64,000 nucleotides of DNA, from assembly GCF_021917145.1 (NCBI RefSeq), contig NC_061066.1, forward strand, positions 9,274,685 through 9,338,684, in the 5' to 3' direction. Of this stretch, positions 5,150-64,000 are shown piece by piece; positions within the stretch are counted from its first letter, which is position 1; the number at the start of each line of letters is the position of its first letter. Position numbers and translations under genes: made by a program. Source of the stretch: Hypomesus transpacificus (Eukaryota; Chordata; Actinopteri; Osmeriformes; Osmeridae). The notes beneath the pieces were generated by a model that saw only the letters and a program-made list of their open reading frames with translations, was not told the DNA's origin and searched no databases.

Positions 5150-5552
5150 GAGGGACTAGAGGAGGGACCAGCCTTGAGGAGGGACCAGGAGAGACCAGAG
5201 GAGGGACCAGAGGAGAGACCAGCCCTAAGGAGAGACCAGAGGAGAGACCAGAGGAGAGACTAGAGGAGGGACCAGAAGAGAGACCAGAGGAGACCAGAGG
5301 AGAGACCAGCCCTGAGGAGGGACCAGAGGAGAGACCAGAGGAGAGATCAGAGGAGAGACCCGAGGAGAGACCAGAAGAGAGACCAGAGGACGGACCAGAG
5401 GAGAGACCAGAGGAGACCAGAGGAGAGACCAGAAGAGAGATTAGAGGACGGACCAGAGGAGCGACCAGAGGACGGACCAGAGGAAAGACCAGAGGAGGGA
5501 CCAGAGGAGCGACCAGAGGAGGGACCAGCCCTGAGGAGAGACCAGAGGAGGG
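5150..5552. repeat. Purine-rich array abutting the ankrd34b start codon
   Basis: Degenerate copies of GGACCAGAGGAGAGACC run from about 5150 to the base before the ankrd34b ATG at 5553. The last unit reads directly into the start codon. The array must therefore be 5' UTR or the 3' end of a 5' intron. The minus-strand frame of Ser/Gly/Leu repeats across it is an artefact of the repeat. Confidence 0.85.
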
Positions 5553-7793
5553 ATGGAGGTGCGTACAGATGGGAACTCCCTGCTGAAGGCCGTGTACCTT
5601 AGCCGCTTGCGTCTGACACGGCTGCTGCTGGAGGGTGGAGCCTACGTCAACGAGAGCAGTGAGCGCGGAGAGACCCCACTGATGGTAGCCTGCATGACGC
5701 AGCATGCTGACGCACAGAGCGTGCCCAAACACCGGATGGTCCGGTACGTAGTCTGCAGGTGATCCACAGCGGGCGATAGGCTACACCTGTTACAGTACAG
5801 GTAACACAGGGGGTGCTAGGCTACACCTGTTACATTACAGGTAACACAGGGGGGCGCTAGGCTACACCTGTTACATTACAGGTAACACAGGGGGCGCTAG
5901 GCTACACCTGTTACATTACAGGTAACACAGGGGGCGCTAGGCTACACCTGTTACATTACAGGTAACACAGGGGGCGCTAGGCTACACCTGTTACATTACA
6001 GGTAACACAGGGGGCGCTAGGCTACACCTAAGGGAGCACCTTTTACAGCAAACTATAGCTATAGGTTACAGGGTTTATTCTGCAGCTCAATTGTTATTAT
6101 ATTTGCATACATATGCACTTTTTGTATATTTCTTTGCCCATTTTTACTGTTATGGGTTTTTCTTTTTCACATTGACAATGAAGGGAGCACTATTAATACA
6201 AATAATCATTATTATTATTATTATGACCGCAGGTATCTGCTGGAGAGTGGTGCAGACCCCAACATCCAGGACAAGACAGGGAAGACAGCCCTGATGCACG
6301 CCTGCCTTGAGAGGGCGGGAGCAGAGGTGGTGACTCTGCTGCTGGGCAGCGGAGCTGACCCCAGCCTGGAGGACCACTCCGGCTCCTCAGCCCTTGTCCA
6401 CGCCGTCAACGCCGGAGACAAGGAGGCGCTGCGGGTCCTGCTGGAGGCCTGCAAGGCCAAGGGCAAGGAGGTGATCATCATCACCACCGACAAGCTCCCC
6501 TCCGGACGCCAGATGACCAAGCAGTACCTCAACGTCCCCCCTCCCCCAGACCTGGAGGAGCGCCTGCACTACACGCCAGCCTCCTGCTGCATGTCGCCCT
6601 CAGACATCCAGCTCCGCACGCCTCCCCAAGGGGCATCAGGCAGTGCCTCACCCCAGCCTGGCAGCCCTCTGCTGGGCCTCAGAGACCCGCAGGACTGCGG
6701 TCCCGCCAACTCCCAACCAGAGTCTCCGACCCGCGAGCCAAGTCCGCTGCGAGGTCAGGGCTTGGGCCGGCTGCTCCATCTCCAGCGTCTGCACTTGGAG
6801 CCCTGGCTGAAGAGCCCCCCGTCCCTGCTACAGCACAGCCAGTCCTCCTCGCTGATGGAGGGGCTGCAAGACATCCCTCTGGAGGAGGGGCTGCTAGACA
6901 TCCCTCTGGAGGAAGGGCTCAGCAGCCTGGGCTTCCAGGGGCGCCCCCCCACCCGTCAGCACAGCAGCGACACCACAGGCCCGAAGCGAGGCCTGGAGCA
7001 GGCAGGCAGCGAGGCCGGTGGAGCCTGGGGGAGAAAAGGACTGGGCAGGAAGATGTCTTACGACAGCGCCTCCGCACCTCACTGCTCCTCACACCCCAGC
7101 CTGGAGCCTCACTCTTCCTCACATCCCAGCCTGGAGCCCAAGGACCCTGCCGCGCCGCTGGACAGAGACTCCTGCTTGCCTCACCTGGCGCTGTCCAGCC
7201 TGAGGAATGTGGTCCGGCGCCGCAACTTTGGCATGGACCACTACAGCTCTGACTCGCAGCTGCCCCAGTTTGGCAGCTACCCCCCGGAGGACAGCGCCAG
7301 GATGTGTGGAGCCGGCGGGGGGCAAGAGAAGCGCAAGCTGGTGGGGAGCCGGTCCTCCACTCTGTCGGGCTCCAGGGAGTCCCTAGAGAGGAGGGGCCCT
7401 GGGGCACTGGAGCGCCGGGGATCAGGGGCCCTGCTCCTGGATCACATCTCCCACACCCGCCCGGGGTACCTGCCCCCGCTCAACCCCCACGCACCCATTC
7501 CCGACATCGGGGCCAGCCCCACCGCCCCGGGGCCCCTGGGCGGGAGCAACAAGACGCTTAGCAGCGGGCCAAAGCCCCTGGTACCCTGCACCCCCCTGCT
7601 GCCCTGCGCCCCCCTGGTACCCTGCACCCCCCTGCTGCCCTGCGCCCCCCTGCTGCCCTGCGCCCCCCTGCTGCCCTGCGCCCCCCTGCTGCCCAAGGAG
7701 CTGAAGGCCAGGAGGACCCTGCTCAGGCGTCACTCCATGCAGACCGAGCAGATTCAACAGCTGGTCAACTTTGAGGAGGTCTTTGGGCACTAA
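5553..7793 (+). CDS. ankrd34b: Ankyrin repeat domain-containing protein 34B
   Basis: Two coding exons, 5553-5743 and 6233-7793, joined in phase 2 (CG|G), give 583 residues and a TAA stop. The N-terminal part, about residues 8-145, holds four ankyrin repeats with the family signatures [51 protein letters not shown] and [40 protein letters not shown], the hallmark of the ANKRD34 family, follows. The rest is low-complexity and Ser/Pro-rich, ending in a conserved tail ([20 protein letters not shown]). Residues about 512-552 are a hexapeptide repeat PL(L/V)PC(A/T). The family has no known enzymatic function; members are expressed mainly in brain. The neighbour fam151b, as in human 5q14, identifies paralogue B. 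The ATG at 5553 is chosen because the family starts just before GNSLLKAV. A polyadenylation signal AATAAA lies at 8055. Confidence 0.93.
5765..6030. repeat. ~42-bp minisatellite in the ankrd34b intron
   Basis: About six copies of a unit containing GCTAGGCTACACCTGTTACA and TTACAGGTAACACAGGGGG. It starts about 20 bp downstream of the exon 1 donor (GT at 5744) and fills roughly half of the 489-bp intron. An AT-rich tract with ATT repeats lies before the acceptor at 6231. Confidence 0.9.
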
Positions 7794-8705
7794 ACTCTGC
7801 TTGCTCTGCGTTGTGTTGCTGTGTACTTAAGGTGTGATTTGAGATAATACCTTTCATAAAGCTAGTTATTTACCTCTGCTTTGCTGTCAACTACAGTCCG
7901 AATATTGAAGCCCAGGGTTGTCAAGTGTATAAATGTACTGTCTCAAAACGCTGTGGCGGGTATACCTTCACACTCTCGTTCTGACCTGGATGCCTGACCT
8001 CGCCCGGTGACCAGGAGGATATACTCGACAGGGCTGACTTCAGAGTCACGTTCTAATAAATGGTTTTATTCTTTTAAATTATGTGCAATCATTTCAACTA
8101 TTTATGCATCTATTGATATTCTGTTCAATTTTAAAACATGCCATTGAAATATTAGTGGTTTTACAGTTGGAGATGCACAGCTATTGCATGGTTTACTCTG
8201 AAATGCATATGTATGTGGTGGATATACAGAACATCAAACAGCATTCATGACAAAAACAATGCACACTTCCAAAGTCTTATTAATTATTATTATTATTATT
8301 AAGTATAATAGTACAGACATTTTTTTGTTTTTCACCCAGAGCTGAACCATACATGATTCTGGCTGTGATATAACTCTCATCAGCTGTAACAACAGAACCT
8401 TCCTTTTGTGCATCTTTGCTTTAATAAACTGAATTCATTTGACCAAACTTTTCAAGGTGAAACATCTTTTTTAAATGGAAACATTCTCCCTCATTGTGAC
8501 TGTGGCTGCAACACAGGAGTTGCTAATAGCAACATCACTGTCCTACATGGCCTGAATGTGTTTCTCCAGCTATTTCCCGTGGCCCTGGAGGCTGTGACTC
8601 ATTTTTCTCTATAGACATTGTTGGCTCGGTCGCGTCAAGTCTGTTGACAACCAGTATTTCTCTTAGCAACGGTAATTTCAGTCTTTCCTCTACAAAATGG
8701 GATTA
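7794..8705. other. Convergent 3' UTR region of ankrd34b and fam151b
   Basis: AT-rich sequence between two convergent stop codons. It contains AATAAA at 8055-8060 for ankrd34b and an ATT microsatellite near 8285. No further coding frame or RNA gene is recognised. Confidence 0.6.
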
Positions 8706-63705: not shown

Positions 63706-63724
63706 GTAAGTGTGGGACCAGAAC

Positions 63725-64000
63725 CTCACAGCTGTCCTGTCACACCTGTCGTGTCACAGCTGTCCTGTCACAGCTGTCCTGTCACACCTGTCCTGTCAAA
63801 GCTGTCCTGTCACAGCTGTCCTGTCACACCTGTCCTGTCCTACCTGTCCTGTCCTACCTGTCCTGTCACACCTGTCCTGTCACTCCTGTCCTGTCACACC
63901 TGTCCTGTCACACCTGTCCTGTCACACCTGTCCTGTCACAGCTGTCGTGTCACACCTGTCCTGTCACACCTGTCCTGTCACAGCTGTCCTGTCACACCTG
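63725..64000. repeat. 15-bp CTGTCACACCTGTC array, runs off window
   Basis: Units of CACCTGTCCTGTCACAGCTG start about 20 bp after the apba1 exon donor at 63706 and continue past the window edge. Confidence 0.93.

What the first reader, a model, noticed from the sequence alone, without database searches (positions are those of the whole stretch)
5150..64000. Minisatellites nucleate at splice junctions across the whole window
At least a dozen tandem arrays start within 0-30 bp of an exon end in ankrd34b, fam151b, ccdc125, rad17, ak6, ocln and apba1. In at least seven the unit contains the splice site itself: ccdc125 exon 7 donor, fam151b exon 3 donor, rad17 exon 8 acceptor, exon 11 acceptor and donor, exon 14 donor, ocln exon 2 donor and exon 5 acceptor. 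Introns of marveld2 and ak6 introns 1-3 lack them. Either conserved junctions seed slippage in this lineage, or arrays elsewhere in introns are lost faster. I know of no described genome-wide trend of this kind.
Basis: partly seen in the sequence, partly recalled or inferred. Interest (0 to 1): 0.72.

Follow-up and report, generated by a model that had tools for sequence, protein, structure and literature searches.

The report
Fish intron repeats beginning at splice sites
In one stretch of a fish genome, short DNA repeats inside genes mostly start at or next to the points where introns are cut out, and some copy the cut site many times over; much of this is what random duplications in very short introns would give, but a modest excess is left.

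Summary
I rebuilt eight teleost genes, some partial (91 junctions, 43 bounded introns; joined exons open in all eight). Of 26 minisatellite arrays in those introns, 10 touch a splice junction, 17 lie within 10 bp and 20 within 30 bp. Random placement in the present introns predicts 0.3, 2.9 and 6.5 (p<1e-10). At 9 of 91 junctions the exon edge itself is copied into the intron, giving ladders of up to 26 near-copies of a splice site. But the introns are compact: the 24 array-free ones have a median of 161 bp and the median unit is 31.5 bp. If one-unit duplications fell at random on such introns and later expanded, 7.9 touching and 10.2 within 10 bp are expected (p=0.23 and 0.005). So splice sites inside units need no hotspot; a modest excess of arrays flush with splice signals remains. 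General AGGT seeding is not supported. Known teleost AC/GT repeats at intron ends contribute. The genome-wide claim is untested: the genome search did not complete. I favour neutral tandem duplication in compact introns, filtered by splicing tolerance, with a possible weak junction bias.

The parts
37311..37593 (-). ocln exon 2 donor array, 31-bp unit x 9.1, holds 11 exonic nt plus GTGAGC; 8 identical decoy donors at 31-bp spacing
35004..35074 (-). ocln exon 4 donor, 35-bp unit x 2.0, 100 percent matches, 21 exonic nt plus donor
33797..34292 (-). ocln exon 5 acceptor array, reaches 25 nt into the exon
35178..35678 (-). ocln intron 3-4 pyrimidine-rich array, 28-bp unit x 17.9, ends 2 bp from the acceptor
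33473..33637 (-). ocln intron 5-y pyrimidine-rich array, 65-bp unit x 2.1, ends 4 bp from the acceptor
22687..23064 (-). rad17 exon 11 donor array, 24-bp unit x 15.9, 8 exonic nt plus donor; 14 decoy donors within 1 mismatch, all of equal or better score
23152..23486 (-). rad17 exon 11 acceptor array, 31-bp unit x 10.8 ending exactly at the AG; 7 decoy acceptors within 2 mismatches
19645..19844 (-). rad17 exon 14 donor array, 75-bp unit x 2.6, 25 exonic nt plus donor
24751..25294 (-). rad17 exon 8 acceptor array, 14-bp unit x 39.5, ends at the junction; first 10 exonic nt resemble the unit (one gap); 26 decoy acceptors within 2 mismatches
13109..13482 (-). ccdc125 exon 7 donor: merged array, 33-bp unit x 8 plus a 41-bp related stretch, 26 exonic nt plus donor; 9 decoy donors
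12294..12357 (-). ccdc125 exon 10 donor array, 24-bp unit x 2.7, 3 exonic nt
14407..14543 (-). ccdc125 exon 4 acceptor with 18 exonic nt (14407-14430) and its copy 113 bp upstream (14520-14543), with the 36-bp array 14428-14511 between
10045..10130 (-). fam151b exon 3 donor array, 32-bp unit x 2.6, reaches 13 nt into the exon
9285..9768 (-). fam151b intron 4 array, 30-bp unit, starts 13 bp after the donor
23660..23859 (-). rad17 intron 10 array, 36-bp unit, starts 8 bp after the donor
19949..20078 (-). rad17 intron 13 GT-rich (sense strand) array, 8 bp from the acceptor
21180..21228 (-). rad17 intron 13 AC-rich (sense strand) array, 5 bp from the donor, partly complementary to 19949-20078
29690..30168 (+). 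ak6 intron 4 array, 32-bp unit x 15.2, fills 479 of 500 bp
5765..6029 (+). ankrd34b intron array, 40-bp unit containing TTACAGGTAA, 21 bp after the donor

Best explanation
These are ordinary minisatellites born as short tandem duplications of one unit (13-115 bp, median 31.5) at nearly random places in very compact introns, then expanded. Because the introns were only about as long as a few units, many duplications straddled or abutted a junction. Those that straddle a junction survive because splicing can still use the outermost site, so the mRNA is unchanged and the copied exon edge becomes intron. Shown: array positions, exon edges copied into the intron, decoy ladders, compact array-free introns. 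Inferred: that the duplications were neutral, the ancestral intron sizes, and that the outermost splice site is the one used. A smaller extra share of arrays flush with splice signals probably comes from low-complexity sequence there (pyrimidine tracts, AC/GT runs).
For: Touching arrays 10 of 26 against 7.87 expected when seeds fall length-weighted on introns as long as the 24 array-free ones (p=0.23); 9.81 expected with introns capped at 160 bp (p=0.55). Array-free introns have median 161 bp; the non-array part of the 19 array-bearing introns (median 224) does not differ clearly (p=0.15), and arrays make up 6,625 of their 15,482 bases, a little over half of what they have beyond the array-free mean. 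In a 41-intron version their full length did differ (p=4e-6). Array cover is alike inside introns (0.320) and outside the gene spans (0.325), so arrays are not special to genes. Using the outermost site restores the protein (ocln EPQE|AIAVV, rad17 DPE|GVLE), while 13 of 17 decoys tested shift the frame or bring stops; the rad17 model, 589 of 656 residues given, aligns over residues 3-589 with human RAD17 in 7z6h_B at 625 bits. Arrays within 30 bp of acceptors are more pyrimidine-rich than those near donors (0.64, n=9, versus 0.45, n=11; p=0.037).
Against: Arrays within 10 bp remain in excess over the same model (17 versus 10.15, p=0.005), and arrays that do not cross a junction but end within 10 bp are 9 of 18 versus 3.9 expected even with introns capped at 160 bp (p=0.004). 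In introns whose non-array length plus one unit is 300 bp or more, 5 of 15 arrays touch versus 1.3 and 8 of 15 are within 10 bp versus 1.7 expected; the model must assume that this extra length came later, and nearly half of the extra length of array-bearing introns is not array. I have little sign of later insertions: in nine long introns no terminal inverted repeats and one dispersed repeat (34694-34778).
Confidence: 0.55

Rival explanations
1. Splice junctions are true hotspots for tandem duplication in this lineage (for example by polymerase pausing, R-loops or nucleosome edges at exon borders), so arrays nucleate there whatever the intron length.
For: 17 of 26 within 10 bp versus 7.16 under the seed model on present non-array length (p=3e-6); arrays of fewer than 3.5 copies, the youngest by copy number, 8 of 11 within 10 bp versus 2.7 (p=1.5e-4); long introns 8 of 15 versus 1.7 (p=5e-5).
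Against: The excess shrinks to p=0.005 with array-free introns as ancestors and vanishes with 100-bp ancestors. Eight introns of marveld2 and ak6 have none. The window was picked because the pattern was seen.
Confidence: 0.22
2. The repeats are kept next to splice sites because they help splicing: AC-rich repeats after the donor pair with GT-rich repeats before the acceptor and bring the sites together, and pyrimidine-rich arrays serve as the tract.
For: AC runs in 9 of 43 donor ends versus GT in 4, GT runs in 13 of 43 acceptor ends versus AC in 2 (Fisher p=0.006). rad17 intron 13 has complementary stretches near its two splice sites (59 nt, 78 percent; duplex -106 kcal/mol). The effect is stated for zebrafish in PMC6093180 (passage seen).
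Against: Ends of the same intron do not pair better than mismatched ends overall (p=0.11), and only 1 of 43 introns has AC at the donor end and GT at the acceptor end. Many units here are not AC/GT-rich. Decoy splice sites should hinder, not help (inference).
Confidence: 0.12
3. Arrays arise anywhere in introns but those away from junctions are deleted faster, since deletions that reach a splice site are removed by selection.
For: Would leave arrays flush with junctions, as seen for non-crossing arrays (9 of 18 within 10 bp).
Against: Arrays can shrink by losing copies without touching a junction (inference); arrays of few copies show the bias as much as long ones (8 of 11 versus 9 of 15 within 10 bp). 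Not tested across species.
Confidence: 0.08
4. A general motif such as AGGT or CAGGT is prone to tandem duplication and splice sites merely carry it.
For: AGGT in 10 of 15 junction-near units versus 5.3 in shuffles.
Against: In the 46 other arrays AGGT is at chance (13 versus 14.1), CAGGT too (5 versus 4.2) (that call still counted the two arrays beside ocln exon 5 among the 46).
Confidence: 0.03

Closest known systems
Teleost (AC)m-(GT)n introns (Lin et al. 2016, Genome Res; abstract recalled, paper not held; described in PMC6093180 and PMC9198270, passages seen)
   Same: Repeats right beside both splice sites, AC after the donor, GT before the acceptor, in a teleost; same direction of bias here.
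   Different: Those are dinucleotide runs with paired partners; most arrays here have longer units (median 31.5 bp), one intron only shows both ends, and nine junctions have their exon edge copied.
Splice-site-containing repeats of fish MHC class II B introns (PMC4394517, passages seen)
   Same: Intronic tandem units (CCAGGT of perch-like fish, GTCCAGTTGA of flounders) that carry splice-site dinucleotides and change intron length.
   Different: [quoted passage not shown] here several genes, mostly introns within conserved proteins, longer units that contain coding sequence.
Tandem duplication across an intron-exon boundary and intron gain (Rogers model; potato RdRp, PMC4974935, abstract and introduction seen)
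   Same: A duplication that crosses a junction copies a splice site together with exon sequence.
   Different: I see no new intron here except possibly in ankrd34b; the copies stay inside existing introns and expand to up to 39.5 units.
Classical minisatellites (VNTRs)
   Same: Unit mostly 10-100 bp, head-to-tail, mean G+C of arrays 0.51-0.57 against 0.43 in non-array intron.
   Different: Position at splice junctions; polymorphism not testable here.

Membership tests
Minisatellite | tandem array, unit about 10-100 bp | tested here: met
   61 merged arrays in the window, 18,472 bases; among the 26 studied one unit is longer, 115 bp
Minisatellite | variable copy number between individuals | not testable with these tools
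   one sequence only
Teleost (AC)m-(GT)n intron | AC run near the donor and GT run near the acceptor of the same intron | tested here: not met
   1 of 43 introns has both in its end stretches of up to 120 nt (rad17 intron 13); not met by the others
Teleost (AC)m-(GT)n intron | the two ends pair better than chance | tested here: not met
   sum of duplex energies -1482 versus permuted -1396, SD 67, p=0.11; rad17 intron 13 alone -106 kcal/mol
Teleost (AC)m-(GT)n intron | splicing independent of U2AF2 | not testable with these tools
   needs knock-down
Intron gain by tandem duplication | new intron absent from relatives | tested here: inconclusive
   no orthologous gene could be fetched; the ankrd34b intron cuts the ankyrin repeats and the human gene is recalled as having one coding exon
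Tandem duplication across a splice junction | exon edge plus splice site copied in the adjacent intron | tested here: met
   7 of 89 junction probes score 13 or more and one 12, against 0 of 89 for the best of six control probes shifted 26-71 nt to the exon side; ocln exon 5 acceptor added: 9 of 91

The most novel reading that the evidence does not exclude
In this fish lineage exon-intron junctions are real birth sites of tandem duplications, independent of intron length, so that introns grow outward from their splice sites and genes carry natural ladders of many near-identical decoy splice sites from which the spliceosome reliably picks the outermost.
Probability: 0.22. Interest if true: 0.72.

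Novelty: new variant of a known kind. Interest (0 to 1): 0.42.

Why it matters
If it held genome-wide it would link intron growth to splice-site position and give many natural test cases for a textbook question: how the spliceosome chooses among identical neighbouring sites. ocln exon 2 is followed by eight exact copies of its donor 31 bp apart, and rad17 exon 11 by 14 near-copies, ten of them exact in the nine bases compared; among the sites tested only the first gives the conserved protein. Even if the placement is only geometry, these ladders are directly usable.

Tried and rejected
Uniform placement within present introns as the null: rejects at p<1e-10 but is too easy, because it forbids duplications that overlap the exon edge and ignores that introns were shorter before the arrays grew. 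General AGGT/CAGGT seeding: not supported outside junction arrays. A donor/acceptor asymmetry of exon crossing: by TRF 7 donors and 1 acceptor are crossed by 3 nt or more (6 and 2 with the stricter setting), by copied exon edges 6 donors and 3 acceptors; too few to build on. Pairing of intron ends as a general cause: not supported. Rfam on the window: no match. Inverted repeats of 16 nt or more in nine long introns as signs of transposons: only the AC/GT stems of rad17 intron 13 and one short palindrome. Self-comparison after masking: four short hits, one of them coding similarity of ocln and marveld2. Ten library searches listed no title or abstract start that describes minisatellites concentrated at splice junctions; the library lacks most subscription journals, and some lists were cut (one search showed 12 of 17).

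Robustness: TRF thresholds 40, 50 and 80, a stricter mismatch penalty, and inclusion of microsatellite-like arrays gave similar counts. Junctions left out as uncertain: first ccdc125, rad17 and ocln exons, apba1 exons upstream of 60331. The rad17 exon 10 acceptor (24053) is one of several in-frame choices; the rad17 exon 9 and the first apba1 acceptor could lie a few nt off. Control probes may run past short exons.
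Full report
What the window is. It is teleost DNA (judged from the genes and repeats; the species is unknown to me) with one run of 100 N at 57049-57148. I located exons with human proteins recalled from memory, read junctions by eye and anchored each as a unique string: 91 junctions and 43 introns with both ends known, in ankrd34b, fam151b, ccdc125, rad17, ak6, ocln, marveld2 and apba1. ccdc125, rad17, ocln and apba1 are partial. 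Joined exons are open in all eight. Pfam finds the expected domains in seven (Ank, Menorin, Rad17, AAA_18, MARVEL with Occludin_ELL in two, PID); ccdc125 has only a sub-threshold CC149 match. The rad17 model (589 of its 656 residues given) aligns over residues 3-589 with human RAD17 in 7z6h_B at 625 bits, which supports its junctions apart from the two marked uncertain.

What is there. The window holds 61 merged minisatellite arrays, 18,472 bases. In a 41-intron version they cover 32.0 percent of intron bases and 32.5 percent of bases outside the gene spans. In the 43 introns there are 26 arrays in 19 introns. Ten touch a junction, 15 lie within 5 bp, 17 within 10, 18 within 20 and 20 within 30. 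The other 35 arrays were not counted; three of them lie 13, 18 and 20 bp from the one known junction of an unbounded intron, and four lie in the unbounded ccdc125 intron.

Exon edges copied into introns. A 26-nt probe (20 exonic, 6 intronic) was aligned to the next 400 nt on the intron side for the 89 junctions known then. Seven scored 13 or more (ocln exon 4 donor, ccdc125 exon 4 acceptor, ccdc125 exon 7 donor, rad17 exon 14 donor, ocln exon 2 donor, rad17 exon 11 donor, rad17 exon 8 acceptor) and one 12 (fam151b exon 3 donor). The best of six control probes shifted to the exon side reached 13 in 0 of 89. The ocln exon 5 acceptor, found later, is crossed by 25 nt. That makes 9 of 91 junctions. 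The exonic copies include conserved coding sequence (for example PQE in occludin, DPE and FNP in Rad17), so the direction of copying is most simply exon edge into intron; this is inference.

Decoy ladders. Within introns, near-copies (1 mismatch or less in nine bases) of the true donor with GT intact number 8 for ocln exon 2 (all exact, every 31 bp), 14 for rad17 exon 11 (all of equal or better score, ten exact) and 9 for ccdc125 exon 7 (7 equal or better, seven of the nine steps 33 bp). Near-copies of the acceptor with AG intact (2 mismatches or less) number 26 for rad17 exon 8 and 7 for rad17 exon 11 (scores use recalled donor frequencies). Of 17 decoys tested, 13 shift the frame or bring stops: for ocln exon 2 three of three; for rad17 exon 11 the first donor decoy adds 8 codons in frame and the next two shift it; for rad17 exon 14 two of two; for the rad17 exon 11 and exon 8 acceptors six of six; for ccdc125 exon 7 none of three (+33, +66 and, as far as printed, +231 stay in frame and open). 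Which sites are used is unknown without RNA.

Is it more than chance? Three nulls were used. (a) Arrays placed uniformly within their present intron: 0.27 touching and 2.94 within 10 bp expected, against 10 and 17 (p=2e-15 and 1e-14). (b) A seed of one unit placed anywhere that overlaps the intron, on the present non-array length plus one unit: 5.52 and 7.16 (p=0.02 and 3e-6). (c) The same seed on introns as long as the 24 array-free ones (median 161 bp, mean 191): 7.87 and 10.15 (p=0.23 and 0.005), and within 30 bp 14.47 against 20 (p=0.02). Capping the ancestral intron at 400, 250, 160 and 100 bp gives p of 2e-4, 0.003, 0.06 and 0.62 for the 10-bp count. TRF settings changed little. So the count of junction-touching arrays is about what random duplication on compact introns would give, while arrays flush with but not crossing a junction stay in modest excess (9 of 18 within 10 bp versus 3.9, p=0.004 at the 160-bp cap). 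The window was selected for this pattern, which weakens every p-value.

What could cause the excess. AGGT is enriched in units near junctions (10 of 15 versus 5.3) but not in the other 46 (13 versus 14.1), so a general duplication-prone AGGT motif is not supported. Outside arrays, G+C is raised in the first 10 bp of introns (0.54-0.55 against 0.38-0.46 farther in). Arrays near acceptors are richer in pyrimidines on the sense strand than arrays near donors. AC runs sit at donor ends (9 of 43 introns, GT in 4) and GT runs at acceptor ends (13 of 43, AC in 2; p=0.006). This matches a published zebrafish feature: PMC6093180 states that about 10 percent of introns there have GT tracts before the acceptor that pair with AC repeats after the donor (passage, citing Lin et al. 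2016, which was not held). One intron here has both ends: rad17 intron 13, with complementary arrays 5 and 8 bp from its splice sites. As a general explanation pairing fails (p=0.11).

Mechanism I favour. Short tandem duplications arise throughout compact introns. Those that overlap an exon edge are tolerated because the outermost copy keeps the exon intact. Expansion then lengthens the intron: arrays are 6,625 of 15,482 bases of the 19 array-bearing introns, a little over half of their length beyond the array-free mean, and the non-array parts (median 224) are not clearly longer than array-free introns (median 161, p=0.15). Weak extra seeding at splice signals is possible. The alternative of a genuine junction hotspot keeps about one chance in five; it draws on the long introns, where 8 of 15 arrays lie within 10 bp against 1.7 expected, unless those introns grew later, for which I have little direct sign.

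Comparison with what is known. Repeats that carry splice dinucleotides are described in fish MHC class II B introns (PMC4394517, passages), and duplication across a junction in a potato gene (PMC4974935, abstract and introduction). I found no report of a multi-gene concentration of minisatellites at junctions in ten searches of an incomplete library (titles and abstract starts as listed). The genome-wide claim stays open: the genome search did not complete in five tries.

Noticed in passing
19941-21233: rad17 intron 13 has AC-rich repeats at the donor end and complementary GT-rich repeats at the acceptor end (59 nt, 78 percent complementary; duplex -106 kcal/mol), like the published zebrafish AC-GT introns.
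   Followed up: partly
5744-6232: ankrd34b is cut by an intron inside the ankyrin repeats (CCG|GTACGT ... CGCAG|GTATC). I recall the human gene as having one coding exon, so this may be a gained intron; its 40-bp array unit contains TTACAGGTAA.
   Followed up: no
whole window: The telomere-like string GGGTTAGGG (either strand) occurs in 6 of 61 array units versus 0.4 in shuffles; it also occurs 5 times outside arrays versus 0.3 expected.
   Followed up: partly
13218-13482: The ccdc125 exon 7 array has a 33-bp unit that stays open in frame, so alternative donors would add 11-residue repeats to the protein.
   Followed up: partly
57049-57148: The conserved first part of the Apba1 PTB domain was not found upstream of 60331 by tblastn; it may lie in the assembly gap.
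   Followed up: no
13677-13729 and 52254-52307: A 54-bp segment shared at 94 percent; it looks like the conserved tail of a teleost SINE (recalled).
   Followed up: no
34694-34778 and 41136-41532: Two pieces of a dispersed repeat (37 and 36 bp, 92 and 100 percent) shared between ocln intron 4 and the region between ocln and marveld2.
   Followed up: no
7575-7694: An 18-bp array inside the ankrd34b coding exon encodes a PCAPLL-type repeat; ocln exon 2 likewise has a 9/18-bp coding array at 37931-37991 (GGM-rich loop).
   Followed up: no
52664-53080: Minus-strand open frame that resembles the end of a LINE reverse transcriptase (by eye, from recall).
   Followed up: no
2202-4416 and 49763-51651: Two very large minisatellites of about 2 kb each outside the genes I placed, with strong strand asymmetry (GC skew -0.65 and -0.81 in 2-kb windows).
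   Followed up: no
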